Positions 13,961 through 64,000 of a stretch of 64,000 nucleotides of DNA are shown one piece after another. Every line of letters starts with the position of its first letter. Position 1 is the first letter of the stretch. The stretch is from assembly GCA_030685015.1 (NCBI GenBank), contig JAUXWS010000087.1:102292-166291 (forward strand), read 5' to 3'. Origin of the DNA: a bacterium. Lineage in GTDB: Bacteria; CAIWAD01. The translations under genes and the position numbers were made by a program. Below the pieces are notes generated by a model that was given only the letters and a program-made list of their open reading frames with translations, was not told where the DNA came from and ran no database searches.

Positions 13961-14033
13961 TCCTGAGTAGCTCAATCGGTAGAGCGGGTGGCTGTTAACC
14001 ACTAGGTTGGGGGTTCAAGTCCCTCCTCAGGAG
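13961..14033 (+). tRNA. tRNA-Asn (anticodon GTT)
   Basis: The acceptor stem TCCTGAG (13961-13967) pairs perfectly with CTCAGGA (14026-14032), with discriminator G at 14033. D-loop AGCTCAATCGGTAGAGC, anticodon loop CTGTTAA with anticodon GTT, and T-loop GGTTCAAGTCC are all canonical. No CCA is encoded. It is the last clear host feature before the prophage and a plausible integration locus, though I found no repeat of its 3-prime end elsewhere in the window. Confidence 0.97.
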
Positions 14034-14043
14034 TTTGAAGGTC

Positions 14044-14078
14044 AAAGGGTTCCGCCACAAACGGAACCCTTTCTTTTT
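14044..14078 (+). terminator. Rho-independent terminator after tRNA-Asn
   Basis: AAAGGGTTCCG (14044-14054) pairs exactly with CGGAACCCTTT (14062-14072) around a 7-base loop and is followed by CTTTTT. It ends the tRNA transcript. Confidence 0.93.
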
Positions 14079-47736: not shown

Positions 47737-47853
47737 CTATCTGATTCTCAAGGTGTTCCGACTTGACTTCCGGGAGGGCCTTGTGCAGACTGATGTCCGA
47801 GAATGAACGGGCGAGCTTATCCCCGCCAGTCACACCCCAGCGCGAGAGGACCC

Positions 47854-48696
47854 ATGCGGTCACAGATCCCAGCCTTTGCCGAACACCTGGCGGCCCGGCA
47901 GCTTGCCCTTGGCACTATCACGCCCTACCTGTCCGAGCTGCGCCGCTTTGCCGCCTTCCTGGAAGCGGAGGGCGTTGCCTTCGATGGACTTTCCATCACG
48001 CAGGCCACACGCTACTTCGTCCGAGAGGGAAGGTCAAGTCTGACCACGCGCCGGGCCCTGACCATCCTGAACCAGTTCCTGACCTGGGCCAAGCACCCAC
48101 TGGCGCCTGAGCTCGGCGCCATCCGCCTGCCCCGCGCGCACCAAGCTGCCCCCGACTACCTGAGCGAGGTCGAGGAGAAGGCGCTGCGCAAGGCCCTGAA
48201 GGCGCGCACGGACGTCCGAGACCAGCCCCGGGACCGGGCGCTCTTCTGCCTGCTGCTGGACACGGGGATTCGCATCTCCGAAGCCGCTGGGCTGACCGTG
48301 GGCGACGTGGAGCTGGATGAGAAGACGATCCGGCTGGTCACCAAGGGCGACAAGCGCCGCGTGCGCTTCCTACCCGTGGAGACGCGAGACCTGCTACGGC
48401 CGCTGATGGCCGGCCAGCCGGCGGAGAGCGCCGTGTTTCGCACCCGGACCGGGCGCGCCGTCAGCGATCGGCACATCCGCCGCCTGCTCGACTCCTGGGC
48501 CAAGGCCGCCGGGATCGAGCGGTTCATCCATCCGCACGCCCTCCGGCACACCTTCGCCACCAGCCTGCTGAAGAAGACCGGCAACCTGCGCCTGGTCCAG
48601 CTCGCCCTGGACCACGAGAGCCCCAAGACGACGGCCATCTACGCCCACGTGGCCGACGAGGAACTTCGGGCCGCCATCGAAGGTCGATGCAAGTGA
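47854..48696 (+). CDS. Tyrosine recombinase/integrase, XerC-like
   Basis: A 280-aa recombinase. An N-terminal SAM-like DNA-binding domain (about 1-90) precedes a catalytic domain with Arg in DTGIRISEA, Lys in TKGDKRR, HALRHTFAT, the His in LDHESPKTT and nucleophile Tyr in IYAHV, so the full R-K-H-R-H-Y set is present. ATG 47854 has GAGAGG four bases upstream and is preferred over 47803. It lies between late and early genes rather than at a prophage end, which is unusual for an integrase and leaves open a resolvase role. Confidence 0.88.
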   Translation: MRSQIPAFAEHLAARQLALGTITPYLSELRRFAAFLEAEGVAFDGLSITQATRYFVREGRSSLTTRRALTILNQFLTWAKHPLAPELGAIRLPRAHQAAPDYLSEVEEKALRKALKARTDVRDQPRDRALFCLLLDTGIRISEAAGLTVGDVELDEKTIRLVTKGDKRRVRFLPVETRDLLRPLMAGQPAESAVFRTRTGRAVSDRHIRRLLDSWAKAAGIERFIHPHALRHTFATSLLKKTGNLRLVQLALDHESPKTTAIYAHVADEELRAAIEGRCK

Positions 48697-49338: not shown

Positions 49339-49391
49339 CACTGTCCAATCAATCAGCACCAAGACAATGTTTCAGCAATAAAACCTGATTA

Positions 49392-49456
49392 ATATTTCTC
49401 TATTCAACTTGACTTATAAAAGTGTCTCTGCGTAGTTATGCCCACCAAACGAGGAG
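49392..49456 (+). promoter_or_regulatory. Early promoter module A
   Basis: TTGACT (49409-49414), an 18-base spacer, then TAGTTA (49433-49438) followed by TGCCCACCAAACGAGGAGA. The spacer end CTCTGCG and the downstream leader are shared with modules B-D. Upstream ATATTTCTC is a partial match to the box AGATTTCTCA. Confidence 0.8.
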
Positions 49457-49464
49457 ACGGACCG

Positions 49465-49869
49465 ATGACGAAGATGACGCGCAAAGGCCTGATTAACATG
49501 CTGGGCGAAGACGAAGCCGCTTTCATGCAACTCTTGAAGACCAAGCTGATCCAGCTTATGGCAACCGACAACTTGGACACGGTCCAGCTTGCCCGCGACG
49601 AGATGGCCAACCGAGGCTTGGGCACGAACGGAGAGTGGATTGGCTTTCCGGCAGCCAAAAAGCTCTGGCAAGCGCCGGCTGCTGCCGCCCAGCCGGGCGC
49701 CGACGATGCGACGATCGACGCTGGCCTTGCCGCCCTGGCCAACATCCACTGCGGGTTCGAGACCCTGGAAGCCCGCAACATGGACGCTCTGGACTTCCAC
49801 GAGGTCTGCGTCCTAAGCCTGAAGGACGCCCTGCGCGCCGCCTTTGAGCTGGGCCGGGCAAGCAAGTAA
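49465..49869 (+). CDS. Phage early protein, unknown
   Basis: A 134-aa helical, slightly acidic protein. ATG 49465 is preceded by GAGGAG. Residues about 45-70 (DTVQLARDEMANRGLGTNGE) and the C-terminal CVLSLKDALRAAFELGRASK are helical. No known family. First gene of promoter module A. Confidence 0.7.
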   Translation: MTKMTRKGLINMLGEDEAAFMQLLKTKLIQLMATDNLDTVQLARDEMANRGLGTNGEWIGFPAAKKLWQAPAAAAQPGADDATIDAGLAALANIHCGFETLEARNMDALDFHEVCVLSLKDALRAAFELGRASK

Positions 49870-49892
49870 CCCACACGAGAGGAGACACGGAC

Positions 49893-50207
49893 ATGCTGCT
49901 CAACGACCTGATTGCCAAGCTGGAAGAGCTGGCCCAGGACCACCCGGACGCAGAGGTCAGACTCCTGACTCAATCTCAATGGCCTTTTCAGAATTGCCTG
50001 CTTGGCATCACCACCCAAAGCGCCATTGCCGACGAAGTGGATCAGCAAGAGGCCGAACGGCTTCTGGAGCGGGGTGTCGAACTGGAAGACGAGGACGAGG
50101 TCGGCCCGCGCAAGGACGCCAACCCTGGACCCGAGATCATCTACCTGGTCGAGGGCAGCCAGCTCGGCTACGGCAGCAAGGCCGCCTGGGATGTCTGCGA
50201 ACGCTGA
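49893..50207 (+). CDS. Phage early protein, unknown
   Basis: A 104-aa acidic protein (LLNDLIAKLEELAQDHPDAE; ELEDEDEV). AGGAGA precedes ATG 49893. Its layout of a helix, then V-R-L-L-T-Q and a late IIYLVEG strand resembles small phage and plasmid proteins of unknown function. No confident family. Confidence 0.7.
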   Translation: MLLNDLIAKLEELAQDHPDAEVRLLTQSQWPFQNCLLGITTQSAIADEVDQQEAERLLERGVELEDEDEVGPRKDANPGPEIIYLVEGSQLGYGSKAAWDVCER

Positions 50208-50289
50208 AACGTGCCGATGGAAAACTGATACACCGATCACACGCCCGGGCCGGCAGGATTCTGCCCAGGCAACACCAAGGAGACGACCA

Positions 50290-50565
50290 ATGGCAAAGCA
50301 GAACTGGGACGTGAAGGCCTTCGTGGCCGGGCAAGTGGCGCTGGGACGCGAGACCCTGGGTGGCGCCCGCAAGCGGCTGGGCCGCGTGGATGTCCAGCTC
50401 CAGCAGGCCTTCCTGCAGCTGGGGCAGGATGCGCAGCTTCAGGCGGAGATGGCCACGGTGATGGGCCGCATGCAGGCCCTAAAGGAAAGCGTCGAGCAGG
50501 TGGCGGAGCGGCTGGACGCGCTTGCACCGAAGGAGACCCTGGCTGCCCAGGAGGCCCAGGTCTGA
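50290..50565 (+). CDS. Phage early coiled-coil protein, unknown
   Basis: A 91-aa, mostly helical protein with heptad-like pattern (RVDVQLQQAFLQLGQDAQLQ; MQALKESVEQVAERLDAL). AAGGAGA lies upstream of ATG 50290. Likely a small oligomeric or DNA-associated protein. Last gene of the module A unit, followed by a terminator. Confidence 0.65.
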   Translation: MAKQNWDVKAFVAGQVALGRETLGGARKRLGRVDVQLQQAFLQLGQDAQLQAEMATVMGRMQALKESVEQVAERLDALAPKETLAAQEAQV

Positions 50566-50589
50566 CGGCCCACTGGCATTCCCACTCTT

Positions 50590-50613
50590 ACGGGCCATTC
50601 GTGGCCCGTTTTA
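50590..50613 (+). terminator. Terminator after module A genes
   Basis: ACGGGCCA and TGGCCCGT pair perfectly around a TTCG loop and run into TTTT. Confidence 0.88.
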
Positions 50614-50644
50614 TGTTCAACCATTATTAGTAGTCCAGAACTAA

Positions 50645-50716
50645 AGTCCGAAGATTTCTCACGATTATGTTGACTTAGTTAAGTGGCGATGCGTAGTTAC
50701 GCCCAACAAAAAAGGA
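50645..50716 (+). promoter_or_regulatory. Early promoter module B
   Basis: Box AGTCCGAAGATTTCTCA (50645-50661), TTGACT (50670-50675), 18-base spacer with AAGTGGCGATGCG, TAGTTA (50694-50699) and leader CGCCCAACAAAAAAGGAGAG. Starts the transcript of the 158-aa gene. Confidence 0.85.
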
Positions 50717-50724
50717 GAGACACC

Positions 50725-51201
50725 ATGTCAAGCATCGAATCGGCAGTCACCAAACGCATCGCACGGACTTGGATGGTGGGTTACGACACTACGGAGCGCG
50801 CGGACTTGGCTGCCCTGGGTGACGGGCAGCTTTCTAACGCCTACCGCCGCTTCCATGGCGCACTGAACAATAGGACGGAGCAGGAGAAGACCGAAATCGC
50901 CGCCCTCTACGCCGAGCTCATGCGTCGGCACTACCGGCGCCAAGCCGCCGTGGAGGAGCAGGCCCGGCAGGCCTGGGCCATGGTCGAAGCCGCTGGAGTC
51001 TGGCCGAACAGCACCAAGCGCGTGCCGCAGGTCGGGGCCAGGGTTTGGAAGGTGTTCCCCGCCCTGTTCGGCATGGCCCTACGGGTCAATGGCCGGGTCT
51101 TTCGGGCCAAAGTTGGGCTCCGGGTCCGGCTGGACGCCGGGCAGCCCATCGCCGGCGCCAAAACGGTCGACCTGGACAGCGGATGGCGGATCGCAGAATA
51201 G
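50725..51201 (+). CDS. Phage early protein, unknown
   Basis: A 158-aa basic protein. ATG 50725 follows GGAGAGACACC. N-terminal two-thirds helical, with MRRHYRRQAAVEEQARQAWA, and a beta-rich C-terminus (RVNGRVFRAKVGLRVRLDAG). Not recognised. The start at 50683 is rejected because it lies within the promoter leader. Confidence 0.7.
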   Translation: MSSIESAVTKRIARTWMVGYDTTERADLAALGDGQLSNAYRRFHGALNNRTEQEKTEIAALYAELMRRHYRRQAAVEEQARQAWAMVEAAGVWPNSTKRVPQVGARVWKVFPALFGMALRVNGRVFRAKVGLRVRLDAGQPIAGAKTVDLDSGWRIAE

Positions 51202-51220
51202 CCTTAACGCCAGCCTCAGC

Positions 51221-51245
51221 AAAGCGCCCCGAAAGGAGCGTTTTC
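51221..51245 (+). terminator. Terminator, GAAA tetraloop
   Basis: AAAGCGCCCC and GGAGCGTTTT pair with one mismatch and one G-T pair around GAAA, and the stem ends in TTTT. It closes the module B unit. Confidence 0.8.
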
Positions 51246-51293
51246 TGCTTTACTGGACTAGCGATCCATTTGACTGCTTGTGGCATGTAAAAT

Positions 51294-51368
51294 AGTCCGA
51301 AGATTTCTCATATATAACTTGCTTTCGCAAAGTGTCACTGCGTAGTTATGACCAACACAAAGGGAGAC
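51294..51368 (+). promoter_or_regulatory. Early promoter module C
   Basis: Box AGTCCGAAGATTTCTCA (51294-51310, identical to module B), TTGCTT (51319-51324), 18-base spacer with AAAGTGTCACTGCG, TAGTTA (51343-51348) and leader TGACCAACACAAAGGGAGA. The preceding stretch TTTGACTGCTTGTGGCAT recurs nearly unchanged before module D. Confidence 0.85.
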
Positions 51369-51375
51369 GGACACT

Positions 51376-51552
51376 ATGACGATCAAGACTAACACCAAGC
51401 AAACCGCCGCCAACAACACCTTCCTGAAGAGCGTAAAGCGGGACTGGAACACGAAGATCTACAAGCACGTCCTGGCCCTGGTCAACACCCAAGGCGAGGA
51501 CGCCGCCCGCGCCAACCTGCAAACCTTCACCACCGCCACGCTGAACTACTAA
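51376..51552 (+). CDS. Phage early small protein, unknown
   Basis: A 58-aa basic protein beginning MTIKTNTKQTAANNTFLKSV and ending TATLNY. ATG 51376 follows GGGAGACGGACACT. Mostly helical, with Ala- and Lys-rich composition. First gene of module C and followed 13 bases later by the next gene. No family recognised. Confidence 0.65.
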   Translation: MTIKTNTKQTAANNTFLKSVKRDWNTKIYKHVLALVNTQGEDAARANLQTFTTATLNY

Positions 51553-51565
51553 GAGGGCTGGACTC

Positions 51566-51805
51566 ATGACGACCAACACCAACCTCGCGCCCATGAAAAC
51601 CGGCCTCTACCTGCTTGGGAAGGCCAGTGCCCAGGCAAATACCCTGCAGGCCACACTGCAGCGGGCCGCCGCACAGTTTGCCGCCGACAAGCGCTTCCGG
51701 AACGACCTCGGCGACGCCCTGGCCCAGATCCACAAGCTGGCCGAAGCCATCCAAGACCTCGCGGTCCACGCCGAGATGGCCATCGACGAAACTCCAACCG
51801 CTTGA
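51566..51805 (+). CDS. Phage early small protein, unknown
   Basis: A 79-aa helical protein (LLGKASAQANTLQATLQRAA; GDALAQIHKLAEAIQDLAVH). GAGGGCTGG-type site upstream of ATG 51566. Probably a small oligomeric helical bundle. Unknown function. Confidence 0.6.
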   Translation: MTTNTNLAPMKTGLYLLGKASAQANTLQATLQRAAAQFAADKRFRNDLGDALAQIHKLAEAIQDLAVHAEMAIDETPTA

Positions 51806-51834
51806 CAGCCAGCAGCAATAAGCTGGAGCACTTC

Positions 51835-52101
51835 ATGAACACGACCGCCACCGCCCAGACCACCACGGTCGGCCGCTTCACCTTCAACCACGAGACCGGC
51901 AAAGTCGTCGGCCCCGCCGGCTACCTGCAAAGCGGCCGGTTAGAAGCCATCATGGACAAGATCCACAGCGGGCAGAGCACGGTTTACAACACCGGGCGCC
52001 AGCTGGGCCATGGCGGGATCAACCTGATCCTTGTCTGTATCCAGACCGACTACGCCGCCTGGGCCGGCGAACAGGAATTCCTGGCCCTTTCCCGCCGGTA
52101 G
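51835..52101 (+). CDS. Phage early small protein, unknown
   Basis: An 88-aa mixed alpha/beta protein (VGRFTFNHETGKVVGPAGYL; GGINLILVCIQTDYAAWAGE). TGGAG lies upstream of ATG 51835. The last residues form a helix. No family recognised. Confidence 0.6.
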   Translation: MNTTATAQTTTVGRFTFNHETGKVVGPAGYLQSGRLEAIMDKIHSGQSTVYNTGRQLGHGGINLILVCIQTDYAAWAGEQEFLALSRR

Positions 52102-52123
52102 CGGCAACCCCAACAAGGAGCCC

Positions 52124-52324
52124 ATGACCATGCGACTGCTCTCAAGCGCCCCTGCCCGCATCTTCGCCACCTTGGCCGAAGCCGACAATGCTGCCGCCGA
52201 GCTGGCCACCGGCGAGACCGAGGGCTGGACCTACACGGTCATCCCGGACCCCAAGGGCTCCGGCCGCTGCACTATCGAGATCCGCGACGAGGACGGCCGC
52301 TTCGTTTCCAAGCTGACCAGCTGA
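52124..52324 (+). CDS. Phage early small protein, unknown
   Basis: A 66-aa protein with AAGGAG three bases before ATG 52124 (second ATG at 52130). Pattern of a helix (FATLAEADNAAAELATGE) followed by strands (WTYTVIPDPKGSGRCTIEIR) and a terminal hairpin suggests a tiny alpha/beta fold. Unknown function. Confidence 0.6.
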   Translation: MTMRLLSSAPARIFATLAEADNAAAELATGETEGWTYTVIPDPKGSGRCTIEIRDEDGRFVSKLTS

Positions 52325-52337
52325 AAGGACCACCCCC

Positions 52338-52607
52338 ATGAACCGCTTCACCGTCACGCGCACAGGAACCGGTGCCCCATTCGGAACCATCACCCTTGAC
52401 CCTCTCAATCCGGATCCCGACACAAAGGCCAGCTTTACACCGGCCAATGCCCGGTCCAAGCGAGAGTCCTTTAACGTGGAAGCCCAGCTCATCGACGCCG
52501 CCCGCTGGCTGGCCGAAACTGAAGACAACGTCGTGAGCATTTGCCTCGACTGCGGCTTGACCGTCGGCAAGGAGCCTGAGGCGACACTGGGCGCGCCTGG
52601 CGCCTGA
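52338..52607 (+). CDS. Phage early small protein, unknown
   Basis: An 89-aa protein with two cysteines in SICLDCGLTVGK, a C-x-x-C that could bind zinc, though only one pair is present. Last gene of the module C unit. Unknown function. Confidence 0.6.
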   Translation: MNRFTVTRTGTGAPFGTITLDPLNPDPDTKASFTPANARSKRESFNVEAQLIDAARWLAETEDNVVSICLDCGLTVGKEPEATLGAPGA

Positions 52608-52630
52608 AGCTTCCACCAAAAGCCCCATCA

Positions 52631-52655
52631 AAGGCGCTCCGAAAGGGGCGCTTAT
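52631..52655 (+). terminator. Terminator, GAAA tetraloop
   Basis: AAGGCGCTCC and GGGGCGCTT pair (two wobbles) around GAAA, followed by an AT-rich tract. It closes the module C unit. Confidence 0.75.
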
Positions 52656-52703
52656 TGTATAACTGGGCTATTCATCTCTTTGACTGTTTTAGACATCTAA
52701 AAT

Positions 52704-52775
52704 AGTCCGTAGATTTATTAAATCTAACTTGCTATCCGAAAGTAACGATGCGTAATTATGCCCAACAAAACGGGA
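52704..52775 (+). promoter_or_regulatory. Early promoter module D
   Basis: Box AGTCCGTAGATTTATTA (52704-52720), TTGCTA (52729-52734), 18-base spacer with AAAGTAACGATGCG, TAATTA (52753-52758) and leader TGCCCAACAAAACGGGAGAG. Confidence 0.82.
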
Positions 52776-52783
52776 GAGACACC

Positions 52784-53821: not shown

Positions 53822-53966
53822 CTTCACCCAGATACCCGCCCACCTCGCCCCGGCTCTCTTCGCGCCCGCGGGCCACCCTGGGCCTGCCCGCTCATCGCCA
53901 TACGTCGCCCAAAACTCACTCCGGCGAAGTTCGTTCTTGTCACGGTTGCGGAAATCCTCACCATGA
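53814..53966 (+). CDS. Short ORF at the prophage/island junction, possibly truncated gene
   Basis: ATG 53814 has a good ribosome site (AAGGAG, eight bases upstream) and overlaps the preceding stop, but the frame closes after 50 codons. The start reads like a phage gene (MPDFTQIPAHLAPALFAPAG), the end is Arg/Ser-rich and overlaps the end of the arginase-like gene on the other strand. It may be the remnant left by the insertion that brought in the peptide cluster. Confidence 0.3.
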   Translation: MPDFTQIPAHLAPALFAPAGHPGPARSSPYVAQNSLRRSSFLSRLRKSSP

Positions 53967-54893
53967 CTTCCACCTGCAGTGCGCACCCATGTCAAGGGAA
54001 TGCAGCACTTCCGCACAGATCACTTCGACACTGGTACGTGGACAAAATCCAGGGGAATGACTCAGACTGATCAACTTAAGATGTTTGCGAGGTACGACCA
54101 TCTGCACTTGCTGCATGAAGCCAGCTACATCCATCGTGCAAGCGTCGTGAGGCAATCCACCAACCTCGTCTGCGTCATCAAAATAGTCGCAGTCGATATC
54201 CAAAATGATCGGAGTTTCGCGCGGTATAATGCTGCCTAGCTCCGCGAGATTGCAGTGACCATCGCAGCGAAGTATTGGAATGCCATTACTGCCATCTCTT
54301 GATGGTCGACAACGCAGACGTCGGACGCCTCGGTTTAACAGGTCGTCCTCGGCCCAGCCAACCGTGATGGACGAGGGATTTCTTACGCCGGCGATGTTCG
54401 CAGTTGAATGATCGGGAAACACGAAAGCTATTCCAATGACCGGCAGCAAGTGAAGGGCGAGCGTTAGGTATGATCCAATTTCGATGGCACTGCTGTCGAC
54501 GGCCGATCTCACCGTGAACGGTTCCTGCGGCGAGACTGTCTTACCGGTCCAGCGGTCGATTAAACGACCTGTTGCATCCGGAACGACGTTTGGACTGCCC
54601 AAGTCGTCGTGACTATCGGCGTGGATGATGTAAACTGGCGGTCCGTTCAAGAACATCGAGAGAAAATGCGGCAGGATCGCTGCGTGATGGATGACTTCTA
54701 CCGCAATAACGGATCCCGATGTGTGTGTTGCCAGGACCGTCGAAAGCGGCGGCACACATGCAGACGTCTCGCAAATGACCCGCCCCGGGAGAAACTCGAT
54801 GCGAATTACATCCAGTATCTGCAATTCCTTGCGAGCTACGGCCTCGATGTCGATACCGAAAATGGGATCAAGAGGGATCTCAATCGACGGCAT
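53958..54893 (-). CDS. UPF0489/arginase-fold protein, candidate peptide arginase
   Basis: A 311-aa protein of the arginase-like UPF0489 type. The metal site is visible as IIHADSHDDL (H91, D93, H95, D96) and LDIDCDYFDD (D232, D234, D236), and SLSHSPGFCP near 280 is the family active-site segment. Members in RiPP clusters such as OspR (landornamide pathway) hydrolyse peptide arginine to ornithine. Here it is the last gene of a radical-SAM operon and overlaps the third radical-SAM gene by 14 bases. Substrate inference: the single core Arg (R52) of the 54-aa precursor. Confidence 0.72.
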   Translation of the reverse strand: MPSIEIPLDPIFGIDIEAVARKELQILDVIRIEFLPGRVICETSACVPPLSTVLATHTSGSVIAVEVIHHAAILPHFLSMFLNGPPVYIIHADSHDDLGSPNVVPDATGRLIDRWTGKTVSPQEPFTVRSAVDSSAIEIGSYLTLALHLLPVIGIAFVFPDHSTANIAGVRNPSSITVGWAEDDLLNRGVRRLRCRPSRDGSNGIPILRCDGHCNLAELGSIIPRETPIILDIDCDYFDDADEVGGLPHDACTMDVAGFMQQVQMVVPRKHLKLISLSHSPGFCPRTSVEVICAEVLHSLDMGAHCRWKSW

Positions 54894-55929
54894 AAGTGCG
54901 CGTAGCGTCTTTTGGAATGGCGCGTCGACACCAAGTATTTAGGGCTTCGAAGTCTAGGGGCAATTCCGCCGGCAGTGATCGACTCAGTGTTTCGAGCCGA
55001 GCAACGGCATCGCAATCACTGAACTGTTTCATCATCATCTGACAACTGGCGCAGGTACCCGACGGTGCATCTTCCAATGAATTGCCGAACACCGGCCATG
55101 CCCGGTGTGGACCGAACACGGCGTTGATGCGCGCCAATGGGTGAGCCGCAAGACGATTGAGGCAACAGGCTAAACTGTCCTTACCAATCTTTCCGAGTTT
55201 CATCCCAGGGGTATCTTGCTTCGCGTTGCAGCACACGACGACTTCACCACTAGGTGTGACGGTGGGGCTTGTGAGTGAGAAAGCACAGCGCGCACCGCAA
55301 GCATCGATTGATTCCTTCAGTCCGCTTGCGGCGGCGCGTCCGATGCTTGAGATCTGAGCGGGAAGCCAGTCGACTGATTCCGCGCCTTGAAACAACCCCG
55401 CGCACGCGTGCAGCAAGGTATCACAGGTCCAAGTCGACCCGCTCTGTTCGACAACGTTTACCGCGACATCTAGACCTAGTGTAAGACCGCAATCCAGAAA
55501 GGCAGCAAGCTCCCTCAGAGACACGACTCGAGCATGCCAGTCGTCGTACGACACCATTACCCTTTCCAAGCCAGCATGGGCAAGTCTACGCAACCGAACC
55601 GGTGGGGCAAGTTGACCTGGTGAAAAGATCGAGGTGACCATTTCAACCATCAAGCCCGCGCTGCGGGCAGTACCGACAATCTCCTCGAGTTCGGCGTGCA
55701 ACAGCGGTTCGCCACCCGTCACATGGATCGTGCGGATGGAAAGCTCACTTGCCTGACGCACCACCGCACGCACAAGTCCCAACCCCATTTCTTCACCCTG
55801 AGGACCTGCACCAAGGTAACAGTGCCCACATCCAGTGTGACAGCGCTCAGTAACGCGGAGTGCAAGGACGTATGGCACAGCGATTGGCACTGCTGATGAA
55901 GGGCCATCGTACTCATATGATTCGAACAT
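54880..55929 (-). CDS. Radical SAM enzyme 3 of the peptide cluster
   Basis: A 349-aa protein. The cluster motif CHTGCGHC supplies C30, C34, C37. GGEPLL at 72-77 is the SAM-binding motif. The C-terminal half has extra cysteines (CGARCAFSL, VVVCCNAKQD, CASCQMMMK) suggesting an auxiliary Fe-S region. It is preceded by AAGGAG four bases before the ATG. Likely modifies the precursor. Reaction unknown. Confidence 0.85.
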   Translation of the reverse strand: MFESYEYDGPSSAVPIAVPYVLALRVTERCHTGCGHCYLGAGPQGEEMGLGLVRAVVRQASELSIRTIHVTGGEPLLHAELEEIVGTARSAGLMVEMVTSIFSPGQLAPPVRLRRLAHAGLERVMVSYDDWHARVVSLRELAAFLDCGLTLGLDVAVNVVEQSGSTWTCDTLLHACAGLFQGAESVDWLPAQISSIGRAAASGLKESIDACGARCAFSLTSPTVTPSGEVVVCCNAKQDTPGMKLGKIGKDSLACCLNRLAAHPLARINAVFGPHRAWPVFGNSLEDAPSGTCASCQMMMKQFSDCDAVARLETLSRSLPAELPLDFEALNTWCRRAIPKDATRTYAVD

Positions 55930-55952
55930 TCGGTCTCCTTCCTGTTCGCAAC

Positions 55953-56834
55953 TCAGCTCACCGCAATGAGTTCCTTCGCCAGCATAGCCGGGCCGAGCAG
56001 GAGACCCAGTCGTTGTCCCCGTTCTTGACAGTCAGTTAGGCGCATTCTCGCCGCATCTTCCAGGGAACTCAATTCTCGGGTGAAATGATGGCCCTTCAAT
56101 TTCAGGCGGCCCTCATCGTCCTTCATGCCATGGACCAGAACAAAAGCAGGCTCAGTCGGTACATTCCGCAGGATATCGTTGAGAGCGTCGTCAACATCAT
56201 AATTGTAGAACAGAGCTGACACGTATTCCATCGCCCATTGTAGTCTAATTTCGTCCGTCGACACCTCGCGTAATGCCCAAAAGAAGTACTTAACGCGTTT
56301 CCAGTAGTCTATGTAGGGCCACGCGCATTTTGCTCGCGGTCGCATATCATACCTATCCGGCGAAGCATCGTACAATCGCCCATCGTCGAGCAGGTTGAAG
56401 CGGAGCGCAGCCAACCAACGCCTCTCGGCGCCTTCACCAAGGCCTAGCCGAGGCCGTACGCGGTCACAGCGCATCTGAAAGTGTGAAAAGAAGTAAAGAG
56501 CCTGCTTCTCATTCCAAAATCCCGAGTCTTTGTCGATTAGATCATCAACAAAGCGGCCCATGAGACAGGCGAGCAACTGATGACGAACGATGTCGGGCCG
56601 TTCAGCAGTCGCTTCACGGCCAAGTACGGCTTCCAGAGTGGGGAGCACGAAGCGGGCGGTGTACATGTAGTGCAGGTAAACAACGATGTGTTCTAGTTCA
56701 GATAGGGATGCATCCCGAAGCTCGTCCAGAGTCTCGGCGATCTCGAGTTCAATGTATGGAGCGATAGAAGATAGCCATCGATGAAGCTCGACAGGACCCT
56801 CGAATTCAAAGTTGAAATGACTAGTCGCCATCAT
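55953..56834 (-). CDS. All-helical protein with two Asp-rich motifs, unknown
   Basis: A 293-aa protein, almost wholly helical with many aromatic residues. It contains FVDDLIDKD (D97, D98, D101) and, about 118 residues later, FYNYDVDDALNDI (D215, D216, D220), recalling the first and second Asp-rich motifs of class I isoprenoid synthases. Overall similarity to a known family cannot be judged by eye. It overlaps no neighbour but is 11-23 bases from each, so it is part of the operon. It could be a partner or carrier protein for the radical SAM enzymes, or an enzyme in its own right. Confidence 0.7.
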   Translation of the reverse strand: MMATSHFNFEFEGPVELHRWLSSIAPYIELEIAETLDELRDASLSELEHIVVYLHYMYTARFVLPTLEAVLGREATAERPDIVRHQLLACLMGRFVDDLIDKDSGFWNEKQALYFFSHFQMRCDRVRPRLGLGEGAERRWLAALRFNLLDDGRLYDASPDRYDMRPRAKCAWPYIDYWKRVKYFFWALREVSTDEIRLQWAMEYVSALFYNYDVDDALNDILRNVPTEPAFVLVHGMKDDEGRLKLKGHHFTRELSSLEDAARMRLTDCQERGQRLGLLLGPAMLAKELIAVS

Positions 56835-56845
56835 GCTTGCGCCCT

Positions 56846-58075
56846 TCAGGCTTCGAGCGACGGAGTAGACTGCGGCGCTGGGACTTCAGCCAAGAGCTTT
56901 TGCACTCGCGCTTTGAGTTCCGCGTCTTCCGTTGTGTCAAGCGCACGGGCAGCGTATCGAAAGGCGGCGTCGAAATCCCGAAGGACTATGGCGGCACCTG
57001 CAGCAAGGTAGCCCGCCAAGGGTGAGCGCAGAACAGGAGGAGCTGTCCTGTAGGCTAAAAGGGCCTCTGCGTGGCCGTGCTTTGCGATCAAGCCGAACAT
57101 TCGCTCAGGCAGATCGATCGTTGAAGCAATGCATCCATTACGCGCCAGGCATCCACCCCGACATCGGCCCGAATGCGCATGAGTGCAATCGGTGCACCAT
57201 TTGAACAGAGTTGGCATCCACCTGTTTCGGTCAACGGATCTCTGGAAGTGCCGCTTCAAATCCTCCGGTGAAGAAAAATCTTCGAGAAGGACCCTGTCAC
57301 AACCGGACAGCGCAAAGCAACGCATTACTTCTAAGTCTGGACTGATATCTAATGGGACATCACACGTACCTAGGCGGCTGGCAGTCTCAGGGAGATACTT
57401 AGCCAGCCATCCAAGATCTTCGTCGCTGAAGAAGCAAACAGGTATCGGGCAATCTAAGTGAGCCCGCAGGCCTAGCTGGACTGCCTTTCGCAGCATTAGC
57501 ATGCATCGGGTTGCAAGGGGCTCGAAGTCGACCGCTCCTACCACGCGGCAAGCTGCATCGAGCTCGGGATGGGCGACAGTCCACCGAAAGGTTTGTCGTC
57601 CAAGGTTGTAGGCCAAATTGGGCATGAATTCGGGGGAGAAGCCAAGTTCCCACACGTTAAATCCTAGGGTGGTGCGGAATCCCCGGCGAATGGCATTAAC
57701 AGCGTTGCAAATGACGCTATCGAAGCGGCCCGGGGATGCGTAGGTCATTGGCTCGTTGACATTAATGAGCAAGCTGACATCTGCAGCATCAAGATTATTG
57801 AGCAGGGCCGTATCGAAATAACCGCCAGTAAATACAGTCAACGACACTTTGGGGCAGATCTTGCGGAACACTCTTACTATCGCCTGGAGTTCTGGATGCA
57901 AAAATGGCTCGCCACCCAGTAGTGAGAGCGCATCAAGGCCGTTCAGCGCCACCCAGCGGGCGACACGCTCGGCGTTGGCGATGCTAATCTGACTACTGCC
58001 ACTCCGCGTGCTTTCGCCAACCTCAAAGCAATACGGGCAACGGTTAGAACACTTTCTCGTGATGATGAGGTTCAT
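56846..58075 (-). CDS. Radical SAM/SPASM-like enzyme 2 of the peptide cluster
   Basis: A 409-aa protein. CSNRCPYC gives C9, C13, C16 at the very N-terminus. GGEPFL is at 54-59. A C-terminal cysteine group (CTDCTHAHSGRCRGGC) resembles a SPASM binding site, and the last about 90 residues are helical repeats (TPR-like). Start overlaps the stop of enzyme 1 by ATGA. Expected to carry out a radical modification on the precursor. Confidence 0.85.
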   Translation of the reverse strand: MNLIITRKCSNRCPYCFEVGESTRSGSSQISIANAERVARWVALNGLDALSLLGGEPFLHPELQAIVRVFRKICPKVSLTVFTGGYFDTALLNNLDAADVSLLINVNEPMTYASPGRFDSVICNAVNAIRRGFRTTLGFNVWELGFSPEFMPNLAYNLGRQTFRWTVAHPELDAACRVVGAVDFEPLATRCMLMLRKAVQLGLRAHLDCPIPVCFFSDEDLGWLAKYLPETASRLGTCDVPLDISPDLEVMRCFALSGCDRVLLEDFSSPEDLKRHFQRSVDRNRWMPTLFKWCTDCTHAHSGRCRGGCLARNGCIASTIDLPERMFGLIAKHGHAEALLAYRTAPPVLRSPLAGYLAAGAAIVLRDFDAAFRYAARALDTTEDAELKARVQKLLAEVPAPQSTPSLEA

Positions 58076-59262
58076 ATACCTCCCCCGACGGCGAGAAACT
58101 TCCGCCAGGAATCAAGAACCTCCATGTGATTGATGAAATGATCGTGCAGTCTCAGATTGGCTTTACAGACGTTTGCGGAGAAGGCGGAGTCCTGAAGATC
58201 GAAGGCCGGGCATCCGTGCTCACAGAGAAAACGGGCTCTACAATTTTGGCACACCGTTTCGTATTTTGCATTTTTCGCGTGAAAGGCCACCAAGGCATCA
58301 AGTTCGAATGGTGCCGTCAGCCGTGCAACATTTCCCATGCTGTAGCGGGCAAACTTCTCACCTGTACCTGCACAACCGCAAGGATAGATTTCTCCAGCAA
58401 GGTCGATCGCGACCATGGTCAGTCCGGCATGACAAAAGGGCGTATCGCATGTCAACTGGCCAGGTTCTTTTGAAAAGCAGCGCTTAAGGAAGCGATCAAT
58501 TTTTTGCGCCAACCGCTTCTCGACAATCGTAAAATCTGATTCCTGGGTTGCCGTGCACACGTCACGAAATGCTGTGAAAATCGCTTCGGCAGGCAGCGGG
58601 CTCATAGACGAACCTTTACCGACGGAAGCACCAACGTTGGCCAAGAATGAAGTTACTCCAATTTCGCGCAGAAACTCCATGACTTCCGCCATACGGTCGT
58701 AATTATGCAAACCTATAACGCAAATTGGACCGCTAAATAGGCCAGCCGCTCGCGCCTTCTCGATGCCCCTCATGGTTGCGGCATGATCTCCGCGCATCTG
58801 GTTGTGTATGTGGGCCGGACCGTCCAAAGATGTGCCTAGGCTGACACCGAATTCGCGGAAAATGGAAAGATGCTCATCCGATATCAGCGTTAGATTACTC
58901 TGCAGTCCGAAAGACACTTTCCCACCGCGAGCAGTTGCTCGTGCAGTAGTGTATTCGCAAGCTTCGGCATAGAAACTGGGATCCAGCAGCAGTGGCTCGC
59001 CTCCGTGGAAAATCACGGAAATCGCCGCAGAACTCGACGAAGAAAAGATGGTATCAACGCCCTGGCGCAGGACCGAAATATCCATTAATTGTTCAGCACC
59101 AGGCTTTGATTGGACGGCTTTTGCATAGCAATAACGGCAGGAGAGATTGCAGGCTGATGTCACCTGAAAATGGAGTTCGTTTACGCGCCGCAGCGCTCGG
59201 GCTAGTGACCGCTGACAGAAATCGTCTGAGGATGTGAAATTCTTTGGGCGTAGTCCGGCCAT
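58072..59262 (-). CDS. Radical SAM/SPASM enzyme 1 (cyclophane-maturase-like) of the peptide cluster
   Basis: A 396-aa enzyme. C38, C42, C45 in SACNLSCRYCYA bind the SAM cluster, HGGEPL is at 86-91. The SPASM domain is complete: CHAGLTMVAIDLAGEIYPC, then CQNCRARFLCEHGC (C-x2-C-x5-C-x3-C) and a later Cys. Overall pattern resembles FxsB/3-CyFE maturases, which make three-residue cyclophanes at aromatic-X-X sites. ATG 59262 is preferred. GTG 59286 is an alternative. First enzyme gene after the precursor. Confidence 0.85.
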   Translation of the reverse strand: MAGLRPKNFTSSDDFCQRSLARALRRVNELHFQVTSACNLSCRYCYAKAVQSKPGAEQLMDISVLRQGVDTIFSSSSSAAISVIFHGGEPLLLDPSFYAEACEYTTARATARGGKVSFGLQSNLTLISDEHLSIFREFGVSLGTSLDGPAHIHNQMRGDHAATMRGIEKARAAGLFSGPICVIGLHNYDRMAEVMEFLREIGVTSFLANVGASVGKGSSMSPLPAEAIFTAFRDVCTATQESDFTIVEKRLAQKIDRFLKRCFSKEPGQLTCDTPFCHAGLTMVAIDLAGEIYPCGCAGTGEKFARYSMGNVARLTAPFELDALVAFHAKNAKYETVCQNCRARFLCEHGCPAFDLQDSAFSANVCKANLRLHDHFINHMEVLDSWRKFLAVGGGI

Positions 59263-59397
59263 AATAGAACCCCGCTGCTGCGGCACGACGGGGCCGCCCA
59301 GCTACGTAACAACTATAATCTCTAACCTCAGAAAGGGTTTGTGTTCCCGCTTGGACCGCTTGCCATAAAGCGTGTAAAAACACTTTCCGGCGAGTGG

Positions 59398-59562
59398 TCA
59401 GGTTCCCCGACTATACTTATGGTAAACGGAATAATTTGCGACTGTCTGCCCGGATTCCAAATCCTGATCACGCTTCAATAGCTGCATGAATTCCTGTTCA
59501 GTCGGCAGATGCTCATGGTCCGGGTGATTCCCGCTCTTGACGGCTGGCTTCTCGTCGTTCAT
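59398..59562 (-). CDS. RiPP precursor peptide (54 aa)
   Basis: ATG 59562 with AAGGAG seven bases upstream and TGA at 59400-59398. The 54-residue peptide has a charged, helical leader-like part (residues 18-36, HLPTEQEFMQLLKRDQDLE) and a C-terminal tail GQTVANYSVYHKYSRGT (38-54) with Tyr at 44, 47 and 50. This gives three consecutive Tyr-X-X triplets (YSV, YHK, YSR). It is the first gene of the operon and directly precedes three radical-SAM genes. It has no other explanation that I can see. Longer reading to 59673 lacks a good start. Confidence 0.75.
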   Translation of the reverse strand: MNDEKPAVKSGNHPDHEHLPTEQEFMQLLKRDQDLESGQTVANYSVYHKYSRGT

Positions 59563-60583: not shown

Positions 60584-61603
60584 CTATCTAACACGATACT
60601 CTCGGATTCGTGTGTGATCAATCAGTAATTCCATCGTCGTCAATGTAAACACTTTGCCGTCCGTCGCTTGCAGCATGCGCCGCATGTCCTCCCGCCGGAC
60701 TTTAAACCCTCTGCCGGCGATGCAGGCAATCACATCATAATCTCTGCCCTGTTCATCCCGCAACGTCCTGAGTCGCTGCACGCGAGTCACTTTGTCCCGA
60801 GCTGTCCCATCATCTTCGGTCAGCTTGGCTTCTATCACTGCAACCGGCGTGAACTCGTCCGGAATGAAGAAATCCGGGTTTTGGTCGAAGCCCGCGATCC
60901 GTTCAGCGCGCTTTGTATCACGGAAACTGATCTTAGCTTCCGTCAGCACGTTCTTGACCGCAACCTCTACTACCTCACCCACAAGTTCGCTGACTGAATC
61001 GCGATGGGTTGCAAATGGGCGACCAAGAAATCTCTCATAAAGCAGAACCGGATAGGGCGCTCCGAGATCGGCGATCGACCGCAGACTCTGGAACCCATGG
61101 GCCGTGTCCGCCTTCTCCAGGCGATGAATTATTCCTGGAGGCATGGTCCTTGTTGCCTCCTCGATGGTCCGCACACCTGCTTCGACCATTGCTCGCACCC
61201 TTTGGCCTGTGAGGCCATTGCCTAAGCTAATCGGGTCCAGAGGGTGAAGACGAATCCTACGATCAATGGCGCGCGCCGCTCCCTGATCAATGGTGACGTC
61301 CATGCGTTCCGTTGTCACAAAGGCCCACTCTGGTGGCGTAAAACCCAAAATGCAGCGGAAGACTATTAAGGAGATTGGAACTCGCTGAACGGCAGCGAGT
61401 ATAGTGTCAGTCGTTACAGTGCCAAATGCATCTGTGTGAAAGCGAAGCGCTTGGTAGCCACGTTCAAAAGTTGGATAGTCTATGAACCCTTCACCCTTTG
61501 GCATCTCCAGGAAACTTGACGAGAGTTCGCCGAACACCTCGTCAACTAACGGCTCCCAGGCAATTTCTGGATCGCGGTAATCGATCTCAAAACGCAATGG
61601 CAT
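60584..61603 (-). CDS. Type II-like restriction endonuclease, PD-(D/E)XK fold
   Basis: A 339-aa protein. C-terminal region has the nuclease signature with D244 in NPDFF, then the E258-A-K260 tripeptide in VAVIEAKL. N-terminal 200 residues are a likely target-recognition part. The gene overlaps the upstream methylase by 17 bases, a typical R-M pairing. Cleavage specificity unknown. Confidence 0.75.
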   Translation of the reverse strand: MPLRFEIDYRDPEIAWEPLVDEVFGELSSSFLEMPKGEGFIDYPTFERGYQALRFHTDAFGTVTTDTILAAVQRVPISLIVFRCILGFTPPEWAFVTTERMDVTIDQGAARAIDRRIRLHPLDPISLGNGLTGQRVRAMVEAGVRTIEEATRTMPPGIIHRLEKADTAHGFQSLRSIADLGAPYPVLLYERFLGRPFATHRDSVSELVGEVVEVAVKNVLTEAKISFRDTKRAERIAGFDQNPDFFIPDEFTPVAVIEAKLTEDDGTARDKVTRVQRLRTLRDEQGRDYDVIACIAGRGFKVRREDMRRMLQATDGKVFTLTTMELLIDHTRIREYRVR

Positions 61604-63785
61604 CCTGGTTCCTCTCGTTCATTTCGGCCAGGGCGAACAAAGGACCCATGGCGCTAGACGTCTGCACTTCAGTCACCTGGAGCTGCACCACCACGGCCTC
61701 TGGATCTGCTATCTGGTGCAGAACCTGTCCAAACAACTTGAGCTTGTCGCCAGTAGGTAGGGTACTATCCCATGAGGATCTAAGGCGCCAAATAGACATA
61801 CGCGTTAGGTGACCAAACACAATGCACCGCGTGTCACCGCGCGTCGGCTTACGCCCGCCAACCGTTAGCAACTCCAGATCATGATTCACTACAGCCGCAA
61901 GTTCCGCCGAGGTCTCGAATTGCCACTGCCGTGGCGCCCAGCCAGAACTCCTGCAAACAAATACAGTGTCGACGATTGACGAGGCGGTTCCGTGGATATG
62001 TATCGATCCACCCATTTCAGCCGGACAGGGAAGCGAAGCAGAGCATGTAAGGCCAGAGTCCAAAATGGCGACACCAACAGCAAAATACGCTTCGATCTTG
62101 TTGTGGTGATACGTGAACGCAAGGGGCGCCCCTGGCTTAAGCGACTCGGCCATCCGCGAGTAGACCCTGGAAAGACCATCCGTGAAATGCTCGATGCCGC
62201 GCCCACGGGTCACATTGCCGGTTAGCTCTGCTTCAGCTCTAGTGGACAGGCGGTCGAACCCTTCCGCGTCCTTGCCTACAATCCGGCGAAGCCAGACGTA
62301 ACAGAAGTCCATCAACTCGCCGTACTGGACGTTTCCGAAGTAAGGTGGATCTGTGAAGACTGCGTCGATGCTCTGTGGAGGTAGCTCAGCAATTGTCGAA
62401 TCCTGACAGTGGATCCCAACCACACGCTGTCGAGCGCCATTTCGCTTCTCCCCAATCCACTCACCTGTAATAGGCACCTGCACGTTCTGCGTGCCCACAC
62501 GATGCATCTCAAATGGCTCAACGCAGTAACGTTTCGCCTTTGTATACTTCTCGACAATGTTCGTCCAACCACCTGACCCGACATTCGTACCACCACCGTT
62601 TACGATCCCCAGCAAATTCGACTCGCACTGCACCAGCCCAATAGGGAACCCGTGCACCGAGAAGATGTCGAGCGATTTCAGAGCCCAAGTGTCGTACCGG
62701 CAAAGAAGATTCTGATAGCGAAGTAAATCGGATAGGTTTGTCGCAAGTGCGTGGCGCACCCGCGTGTCTTTCACACTGTGGATCGAGCGCGCACTGAGTT
62801 CCAGGTCGAGCAACTGGCGGTGATTGAACATTTGACGGTAATAGCTGTAGCCCCACTTGCGCAACCGGTCTGTCTCATCGCCTGGCAGAATTTCCTGATC
62901 AGGGACGAATCGTGGTTGGGTCTTGGCCCAACGCTCGTCCACCAAATTGAGTCGGGCTAAATCCTTCGAGTCCGGCTTCTTGAAGAAACGCCCCTTATGA
63001 CCGGCCTTTCGGAGAGGATTGAAATACTCGATCGCAAATAGCCGGTGCCTAAGTGGCCCCGCCTCTGGACGCGGATACTGGTTGACGTGTCCGCATCGGC
63101 CGCACGAACAGCGACCTCGGCCAGCTGGTCCGTCCAAAACTAGCGTAGTGTCGCATTCAGCGCATGCCCCTGGGGCGCTTCTATCGGCCGCCTCGTTCAA
63201 CTCTCCGCAACAAGGACAGATCAGCACGTTCAACGGATGCCGGGAATCCTCAGACACCAAATACCCAGGAAACAGGTCGACTGGACTGCCGCATTCTTGA
63301 CAGTCAATAATCTTAACCCACAGGAAGTACTTCACCGGCACATCAATATCGCCGTAGATCGGACAATCAGTCGTGTAGAATTGGCCAATATCACTAGCCA
63401 AGTTCCCCAACAAATGATCAGCCGCTTCCTGATAGTCTTTGAGATCCAGGTGCTCAATTTCCTCGCGAACGATCCAAGAGGCCATCGGGTTGATGTCAAA
63501 TCCGGCAACGTCACATCCCACACGATTGGCCTCCAACAATGGAGTACCACCTCCCATGAACGGATCGGCGACCATTCGACCTGGGAAGTCATTTGCGACG
63601 AAGTACAAGTCTTGAAGTGATCCCTCACCGAACTCCGCAAGAGTCAACGCCCGAAACAAGGCTCCTGGCCGACGCGCGAACCACTTATGTACTGCGATTA
63701 TAGGGCGATAGTTTTGCTGGATTTGCTTTTCACGAAGGGCGAGGCCCGCTACAAAAGAAATGTCAAACCGGGATTCAATGGACAT
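61587..63785 (-). CDS. Adenine-specific DNA methylase with inserted zinc ribbons
   Basis: A 732-aa methyltransferase. SAM motif DPFMGGGTPLLEANRVG is at 74-90 and the catalytic VFTDPPYFGNVQYGELMDFC near 475-495. Between them are four Cys clusters (CQEC 162-165, CPCC 190-193, CAEC 208-211, CSCGRC 226-231), i.e. two zinc ribbons, as in DUF1156-type methylases. AAGGAG precedes the ATG. Cognate endonuclease downstream. A third, short ORF ends just before the start (TAATG). Confidence 0.85.
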   Translation of the reverse strand: MSIESRFDISFVAGLALREKQIQQNYRPIIAVHKWFARRPGALFRALTLAEFGEGSLQDLYFVANDFPGRMVADPFMGGGTPLLEANRVGCDVAGFDINPMASWIVREEIEHLDLKDYQEAADHLLGNLASDIGQFYTTDCPIYGDIDVPVKYFLWVKIIDCQECGSPVDLFPGYLVSEDSRHPLNVLICPCCGELNEAADRSAPGACAECDTTLVLDGPAGRGRCSCGRCGHVNQYPRPEAGPLRHRLFAIEYFNPLRKAGHKGRFFKKPDSKDLARLNLVDERWAKTQPRFVPDQEILPGDETDRLRKWGYSYYRQMFNHRQLLDLELSARSIHSVKDTRVRHALATNLSDLLRYQNLLCRYDTWALKSLDIFSVHGFPIGLVQCESNLLGIVNGGGTNVGSGGWTNIVEKYTKAKRYCVEPFEMHRVGTQNVQVPITGEWIGEKRNGARQRVVGIHCQDSTIAELPPQSIDAVFTDPPYFGNVQYGELMDFCYVWLRRIVGKDAEGFDRLSTRAEAELTGNVTRGRGIEHFTDGLSRVYSRMAESLKPGAPLAFTYHHNKIEAYFAVGVAILDSGLTCSASLPCPAEMGGSIHIHGTASSIVDTVFVCRSSGWAPRQWQFETSAELAAVVNHDLELLTVGGRKPTRGDTRCIVFGHLTRMSIWRLRSSWDSTLPTGDKLKLFGQVLHQIADPEAVVVQLQVTEVQTSSAMGPLFALAEMNERNQDAIAF

Positions 63786-64000
63786 TAACTGAGCTCCTTA
63801 TCTGACAACAAATCAGTATTGTAATCGCCTCGGTAGAGCTCGCCGATCTTGGTATTGAGAATGGGCTTCATATCACGCATTACAAGATGGTCGCCATCGG
63901 TTCAACATGATGGAAAAGTAGCAAGGGGATGCGACCCAGCCGAATGTAGCGGTAGAAACAAAAGTCGCAGCCGAAATGCTATTTTACAATTCATCAATTT
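63786..64000. other. Region upstream of the methylase
   Basis: On the minus strand a frame ending KIGELYRGDYNTDLLSDKEL stops at TAA overlapping the methylase ATG. It opens only after a TGA, with ATG codons 31 and 28 residues from its end (the first near 63878), and has no good ribosome site. It may be a very small gene or the remnant of a larger upstream R-M gene. Nothing else is supported to the window edge. Confidence 0.35.

What the first reader, a model, noticed from the sequence alone, without database searches (positions are those of the whole stretch)
53958..59562. Candidate new RiPP pathway: precursor, three radical SAM enzymes, helical protein and peptide-arginase-like protein
Six minus-strand genes are tightly packed, with overlaps or gaps below 30 bases among the last five: a 54-aa precursor-like peptide, radical SAM enzymes with intact CxxxCxxC motifs (58072, 56846, 54880), an all-helical protein, and a UPF0489/arginase-like protein. 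Three different radical SAM enzymes together with an arginase homologue in one operon is not a combination I can name. Landornamide-type clusters pair a radical SAM epimerase with an OspR arginase, but use a lanthipeptide synthetase and a proteusin precursor. No protease or transporter is present, so leader removal may be done elsewhere.
Basis: partly seen in the sequence, partly recalled or inferred. Interest (0 to 1): 0.92.

Follow-up and report, generated by a model that had tools for sequence, protein, structure and literature searches.

The report
Orphan radical-SAM peptide-modification gene cluster
A bacterium from a barely sampled phylum carries six packed genes that probably make a chemically cross-linked peptide: a short peptide with three Tyr-X-X units, three radical enzymes, an unknown helical protein and an enzyme shaped like one that turns arginine into ornithine; the exact set was found nowhere else.

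Summary
Six minus-strand genes at 53958-59562 are packed as described. All three radical SAM (rSAM) proteins have CxxxCxxC, GGEP and C-terminal SPASM-like cysteines; the 54-aa peptide has a strong Shine-Dalgarno. The last gene has no Pfam hit, yet its family profile and its model both have the peptide arginase OspR (8BRP) as clear best match, and six Mn ligands can be placed (one by spacing and secondary structure).

The closest relatives of that gene, 33 loci in four phyla, all lie directly behind a YhhB/FxsB-type cyclophane-forming rSAM; in 31 the precursor holds Tyr-X-Arg. YhhB is known to join Tyr to Arg and His to Arg. The window precursor ends YSV-YHK-YSR-GT.

I read it as an orphan RiPP cluster: rSAM cyclophanes on Tyr-X-X units plus Arg-to-Orn at Arg52, related in logic to yhh triceptide clusters but not one of them. 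The helical protein and two rSAMs have no assigned role; no relative of the helical protein was found in 386 sampled genomes or in plasmids. The operon lies in low-GC DNA beside a prophage, probably in a tRNA-Asn-integrated island. Product chemistry is inferred, not shown.

The parts
59398..59562 (-). P1, 54-aa candidate precursor MNDEKPAVKSGNHPDHEHLPTEQEFMQLLKRDQDLESGQTVANYSVYHKYSRGT
   Evidence: ATG 7 nt behind TAAGGAG; no family hit; no plasmid relative
59401..59442 (-). presumed core, residues 41-54: V-A-N-[Y44 S V]-[Y47 H K]-[Y50 S R52]-G-T; three Tyr-X-X units in tandem
   Evidence: sequence; in 100,000 shuffles of these 14 residues both the Tyr period of 3 and two Tyr-X-Lys/Arg units occur with p=0.001, post hoc
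59287..59397 (-). 111-nt gap between precursor and first enzyme; the stretch folds weakly better than shuffles (z -1.86)
   Evidence: no terminator called above chance
58072..59286 (-). P2, radical SAM/SPASM peptide maturase (404 aa from GTG; an internal ATG is also possible). Best family matches PapB, sulfatase maturase, DynA, AmcB; most likely the cyclophane-forming enzyme
56846..58075 (-). P3, radical SAM protein with variant SPASM cysteines (CxxC-x7-C-x3-C) and a C-terminal extension; rare family
55953..56834 (-). P4, 293-aa orphan protein, predicted mainly helical; two Asp-rich stretches, DDLID (from 97) and DVDDALND (from 213)
   Evidence: no family or relative; model pLDDT 42
54880..55929 (-). 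P5, radical SAM protein with partial SPASM/twitch; weak matches to MoaA, PqqE, BlsE and YydG epimerase profiles
53958..54893 (-). P6, peptide-arginase-like protein (ureohydrolase fold). Putative Mn ligands H70, D93, H95, D97, D232, D234
   Evidence: ligand scheme by comparison with OspR H12/D39/H41/D43/D165/D167

Best explanation
An orphan RiPP biosynthetic operon. P1 is the precursor: about 40 residues of leader, then a C-terminal core YSV-YHK-YSR-GT. At least one rSAM enzyme, most likely P2, installs three-residue side-chain cyclophanes on the Tyr-X-X units (Tyr ring carbon to the beta-carbon two residues on), as YhhB does on Tyr-X-Arg. P6 hydrolyses the guanidine of Arg52 to ornithine plus urea with a di-Mn centre. 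P3 and P5 install further radical modifications, for example on the other Tyr-X-X units or an epimerisation. P4 is an accessory or additional modifying protein. Leader removal and export are supplied from elsewhere, or the product stays inside the cell. Shown here: gene layout, rSAM and SPASM motifs, OspR-like fold, placement of the ligands, and association of P6 relatives with Tyr-X-Arg precursors. Inferred: every chemical step, the substrate identity of P1, and the roles of P3, P4 and P5.
For: Operon packing and Shine-Dalgarno. P2 scores best with peptide-modifying rSAM profiles (PapB E=1.6e-37, DynA 5.6e-34, AmcB 1.4e-31). The P6 family profile hits one solved structure, peptide arginase 8BRP, at E=2.7e-10, next hits E>0.5; the model aligns to OspR with Z=16.3 over 217 residues, next ureohydrolases Z=11.6. 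P6 keeps DxHxD and LDIDxDYF, and H70 follows a predicted strand at the place of OspR His12. All 33 relatives of P6 found in genomes follow a YhhB/FxsB-type rSAM, with one open rSAM-HExxH-UPF0489-like fusion ORF (L010). Precursors there end in Tyr-X-Arg motifs: SYDRMHH(R/K)H(N/S)RS in 28 loci, SYSRMHNRHNRS (L066), AYDRMYHRHNRS (L036), LLYIRF twice (L041). YhhB links C3(Tyr) and C2(His) to C-beta(Arg) (PMC11002830).
Against: No family model recognises P1, P4 or P6 above cut-off. P2 is not a YhhB/FxsB family member (95 bits against a cut-off of 445). P6 lacks the EEH(N/H)EAF motif apart from its His, and OspR Glu11 is His69 here. No transporter, protease or HExxH hydroxylase lies nearby. No second operon exists to show conservation of P1. 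The Tyr-X-Arg match in P1 is one motif in a short peptide.
Confidence: 0.5

Rival explanations
1. It is a RiPP cluster, but P6 is not a working arginase: it is a substrate-binding or differently acting ureohydrolase-fold protein, as may be true of its yhh relatives.
For: The yhh relatives have Trp near the place of the metal-binding His and His in place of the first Asp of DIDxD (LHIDMDYF), so the subfamily around P6 is altered at the metal site; P6 shares its closest sequence similarity with them and has His69 for the guanidine-binding Glu11.
Against: P6 itself keeps all six ligand types, including LDIDCDYF and H70.
Confidence: 0.22
2. The rSAM enzymes build a small peptide-derived redox cofactor (PQQ- or mycofactocin-like), and P1 is either its Tyr donor or an unrelated small ORF.
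For: P5 scores against PqqE (50 bits) and P3/P5 against MoaA profiles; P4 is probably helical and of PqqC-like size; no exporter.
Against: No PqqB, PqqC, PqqD or mycofactocin family hits in the operon; P2 is closest to peptide cross-linking enzymes; a peptide-arginase-like gene is not part of known cofactor pathways (own knowledge).
Confidence: 0.13
3. Protein maturation system: the set modifies an enzyme or surface protein encoded elsewhere, in the manner of sulfatase or amine-dehydrogenase maturases, rather than making a natural product.
For: P2 scores with anaerobic sulfatase maturase (122.8 bits) and quinohemoprotein maturase (102.6 bits).
Against: No target gene in the operon; a short ORF with a strong ribosome site stands at the operon head; Tyr-X-X core.
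Confidence: 0.07

Closest known systems
yhh triceptide clusters (YhhA/YhhB, FxsB-type three-residue cyclophane-forming rSAM; NF041705, NF041707)
   Same: UPF0489-like gene of the P6 kind directly behind the cyclophane-forming rSAM; short precursor with C-terminal Tyr-X-Arg; no dedicated protease or exporter seen beside it; mobile setting (plasmids in Novosphingobium and Rhizobium)
   Different: P1 is no YhhA; P2 is outside YhhB/FxsB; no HExxH hydroxylase, GNAT or glycosyltransferase; two extra rSAMs and orphan P4; P6 keeps metal ligands that the yhh relatives have lost
Peptide arginases OspR, FlmR/OhkR, BipC/PbsE (Pfam12640)
   Same: fold, DxHxD and LDIDxDYF, RiPP-like context with Arg in the core; BipC shows arginase plus rSAM in one pathway
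   Different: no Pfam hit, EEH(N/H)EAF reduced to its His, about 18% identity over 217 aligned residues to OspR
Landornamide cluster (proteusin, LanM, rSAM epimerase, OspR)
   Same: rSAM plus peptide arginase
   Different: no lanthionine synthetase, no NHLP leader; P5 is only a weak match to an epimerase profile
Multi-rSAM peptide systems (HxsB/HxsC, ScmE/ScmF, rad_SAM_trio TIGR03913)
   Same: several rSAM enzymes in one peptide-modifying cluster
   Different: none of these families is met by P2, P3 or P5; no arginase-like gene is part of their named families

Membership tests
Peptide arginase, Pfam12640 / NF052474 | profile match above cut-off | tested here: not met
   Pfam none; NF052474 10 bits against 350. 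A yhh relative (L007) gets 22.9 bits of 27 for Pfam12640
Peptide arginase, Pfam12640 / NF052474 | DxHxD motif | tested here: met
   D93-S-H95-D-D97
Peptide arginase, Pfam12640 / NF052474 | LDIDLDYF motif | tested here: met
   L231-D-I-D234-C-D-Y-F238, one conservative-position difference
Peptide arginase, Pfam12640 / NF052474 | EEH(N/H)EAF motif | tested here: not met
   I68-H69-H70-A-A-I-L; only the metal-binding His can be placed, by spacing and predicted strand 64-68
Peptide arginase, Pfam12640 / NF052474 | OspR-like ureohydrolase fold | tested here: met
   Foldseek E=5e-9; VIA Z=16.3, 3.5 A, 217 residues
Peptide arginase, Pfam12640 / NF052474 | Arg-to-Orn activity on a precursor | not testable with these tools
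   needs assay
yhh triceptide (YhhA/YhhB) | YhhA precursor profile | tested here: not met
   P1 hits nothing
yhh triceptide (YhhA/YhhB) | YhhB/FxsB rSAM above cut-off | tested here: not met
   P2 95 bits against 445 (YhhB), 63 against 370 (FxsB)
yhh triceptide (YhhA/YhhB) | Tyr-X-Arg at precursor C-terminus | tested here: met
   Y50-S-R52
yhh triceptide (YhhA/YhhB) | aKG-HExxH hydroxylase domain | tested here: not met
   TIGR04267 not listed for P4, P6 (which have no or one hit) and not among the hits shown for P2, P3, P5; no HExxH-type ORF in the operon
RiPP (general) | short precursor beside peptide-modifying enzymes, core modified | tested here: inconclusive
   layout and motifs fit; modification not shown
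PQQ biosynthesis | PqqA/B/C/D/E family matches | tested here: not met
   only PqqE core similarity, 50 bits against 381
Isoprenoid synthase fold (for P4) | sequence match to SQS/PSY or polyprenyl synthetase | tested here: inconclusive
   no Pfam hit; hhalign of the single P4 sequence against the genome's own SQS and polyprenyl synthetases not significant; no usable model

The most novel reading that the evidence does not exclude
Three unrelated rSAM enzymes each act on one of three tandem Tyr-X-X units (YSV, YHK, YSR), an arginase with an intact metal site converts a cyclophane-bound Arg to Orn, and P4 is a new class of RiPP enzyme; the result would be a tri-cyclophane with a Tyr-Ser-Orn ring, a scaffold I do not know of.
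Probability: 0.15. Interest if true: 0.8.

Novelty: new variant of a known kind. Interest (0 to 1): 0.55.

Why it matters
It links two RiPP activities that have been studied apart, three-residue cyclophane formation on Tyr/His-X-Arg and peptide arginase chemistry, and gives the unannotated third gene of yhh clusters (33 loci here, in Pseudomonadota, Cyanobacteria, Bacteroidota and Clostridia) a testable role: a ureohydrolase-fold partner acting on, or reading, the cross-linked Arg. The window copy keeps the metal ligands and so is the better test enzyme. It also offers an orphan protein (P4) and three highly divergent rSAM enzymes from a sparsely sampled phylum.

Tried and rejected
Homologous operon search: P4 in class, phylum-level and 386 domain-wide genomes, in plasmids and viral contigs: nothing significant. 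P6 profile in the same 386 genomes: only itself. P2 and P5: best domain-wide hits only about 24-42% identity, mostly over part of the protein; viral contigs none. P3: relatives at 22-28% in G152, G337, G094 and Candidatus Chlorohelix, lone or in a different rSAM cluster, no arginase-like or P4-like neighbour. P4 as isoprenoid synthase because of DDLID and DVDDALND: order and spacing are near (119 residues against 127-137), but no sequence or profile support (one search used wrong frames; repeated); the P4 model is too poor for fold search. P1 in plasmids: none. Empty-site test for the island in three related genomes was inconclusive. The weak ERMP1-TM Pfam hit on P4 was dismissed (below cut-off, eukaryotic membrane domain). 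The fused YhhB-UPF0489-like ORF in L010 may be a lost stop or a sequencing error; used only as minor support.
Full report
OBSERVATION. Gaps in transcription order are +111, -4, +11, +23 and -14 nt, so the last five genes are almost certainly co-transcribed. P1 (59398-59562) starts at an ATG 7 nt behind TAAGGAG; in this window 8 of 423 ATG starts of 40-100-aa ORFs have a six-base match of that quality. P2, P3 and P5 each match Pfam Radical_SAM above cut-off and have CxxxCxxC and GGEP. P2 has the canonical SPASM pattern (C285...G-x4-C303, C346-x2-C-x5-C-x3-C359, C374); P3 has CxxC-x7-C-x3-C and P5 CxxC-x9-C, i.e. variants.

IDENTITY OF THE ENZYMES. P2 is closest to peptide-modifying rSAM/SPASM families: PapB, DynA, AmcB, plus sulfatase maturase, all far below equivalog cut-offs; solved relatives include 5WGG, ChlB and anaerobic sulfatase maturases. 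P3 is a rare rSAM with few relatives. P5 is a MoaA/PqqE/BlsE/YydG-like rSAM at low score. P4 matches nothing. P6 has no Pfam hit, but tblastn against plasmids found a gene behind yhhB in Novosphingobium pLA4, and that relative led to Rhizobium plasmids.

P6 AS AN ARGINASE-LIKE PROTEIN. A 20-sequence profile finds one significant solved structure, the peptide arginase OspR (8BRP, E=2.7e-10), with N-omega-hydroxyarginine hydrolase next at E>0.5. A model built from that alignment (pLDDT 74, weak in residues 1-62 and the tail) has OspR as best match by Foldseek (E=5e-9) and by VIA-align (Z=16.3, 217 residues, 3.5 A; agmatinases and arginases follow at 11.6 and below). OspR binds Mn through His12, Asp39, His41, Asp43, Asp165, Asp167 (PMC10028609). 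In P6 the DxHxD is D93/H95/D97 and the DIDxD is D232/D234. The remaining ligand is H70: predicted strand 64-68, then HH, then helix 73-81, with model residue 62 as first aligned residue against OspR residue 3, puts H70 at OspR His12. That last placement is inference from spacing and secondary structure, in a part of the model with pLDDT about 51-66. The neighbouring guanidine-binding Glu11 of OspR is His69 here. The yhh relatives instead show Trp near this place and LHIDMDYF, i.e. two altered ligand positions, so P6 is the better preserved of the group. Because the profile cut-off and the EEH motif are not met, I do not file P6 in Pfam12640; I say that it works like a peptide arginase.

CONTEXT OF P6 RELATIVES. 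The one genome-wide scan gave 33 loci. In all 33 the P6 relative follows a YhhB/FxsB-type rSAM, usually with a fused aKG-HExxH hydroxylase, then GNAT and often a glycosyltransferase. Variants: L041 (Xanthomonadaceae MAG) has a separate HExxH hydroxylase, a YhhB-like rSAM of 314 bits and two tandem peptides ending LLYIRF; L066 (Clostridia) has an HxsC-like second rSAM and a precursor ending SYSRMHNRHNRS; L036 (Hymenobacter) has AYDRMYHRHNRS. In all, 31 of 33 loci hold a precursor with Tyr-X-Arg near the C-terminus. [quoted passage not shown] The precursors of the yhh loci are homologous to each other, so these are not 31 independent events; L041, the window and the yhh group are three precursor types.

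THE PRECURSOR. P1 ends V-A-N-YSV-YHK-YSR-G-T: three Tyr at spacing three, two of them with a basic residue at +2. Shuffling these 14 residues gives both features with p=0.001, but the features were chosen after seeing the sequence. A second Arg (R31) lies in the presumed leader.

MECHANISM. See Best explanation. Which rSAM acts on which unit, whether P3 or P5 epimerises, and what P4 does are open.

NOVELTY. Literature searches found arginase plus rSAM in landornamide, biphenomycin and related pathways and nothing on a UPF0489-like partner of YhhB or on a three-rSAM RiPP cluster with an arginase; the library holds open-licence papers only, so the 2022 triceptide paper itself was not read and may already mention the gene. 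I rate the finding a new variant of a known kind.

SETTING. The contig's GC is 65-70% but falls to 47-57% from 53958 to its end at 64000. Window 15-53.5 kb is a prophage. A 65-bp identical copy of the 3' part of tRNA-Asn with its downstream bases (window 13992-14056) occurs on another contig of the same genome, without the 5' half of the tRNA, next to a 396-aa integrase-like gene (by eye, not scanned) and lower-GC DNA on one side and high-GC DNA on the other. This looks like attL and attR of one integrated island that would include the operon; it is inference, since the contigs are not joined and the empty-site test was inconclusive. The phylum has only five species genomes held, and none of the other four has P4 or P6.

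Noticed in passing
window 15000-53500: Prophage: tail fibre, tape measure, head morphogenesis, portal and terminase genes, and an integrase at 47803-48696.
   Followed up: partly
window 49384-52777: Four copies of a 74-nt leader (TTGACT...GCGTAGTTATGCCCAACAAA...GGAGA) before small plus-strand ORFs, with terminator-like repeats CGCCCCGAAAGGGGCG in front: looks like a serially promoted array of small early genes, one with DUF6900.
   Followed up: partly
window 13992-14056 and L108 7826-7890: 65-bp identical tRNA-Asn 3' end on two contigs, only one with a whole tRNA: likely attachment sites of a large island that holds prophage and operon.
   Followed up: partly
window 60584-63785: DUF1156-type DNA methylase overlapping a 339-aa protein with a weak TPD match, beside the operon at the contig end; possible defence pair.
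   Followed up: partly
L007-L010, L036-L068: The gene behind yhhB, annotated 'hypothetical protein', is a UPF0489-like ureohydrolase-fold family with altered metal ligands; it is a constant but apparently unnamed part of these clusters.
   Followed up: yes
L041 4924-5267: Two tandem 47-48-aa peptides ending LLYIRF before a separate HExxH hydroxylase, YhhB-like rSAM and UPF0489-like gene in a Xanthomonadaceae MAG: a further uncharacterised triceptide-like variant.
   Followed up: partly
L010 2829-5969: rSAM, HExxH hydroxylase and UPF0489-like protein in one open 1046-aa frame in Rhizobium leguminosarum Vaf10; real fusion or sequencing error not checked.
   Followed up: no
L004 4333-11382: Candidatus Chlorohelix plasmid cluster with three rSAM genes, a 98-aa PqqD-sized protein and a 422-aa protein with a Cys-rich C-terminus; shares the P3-type rSAM.
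   Followed up: no
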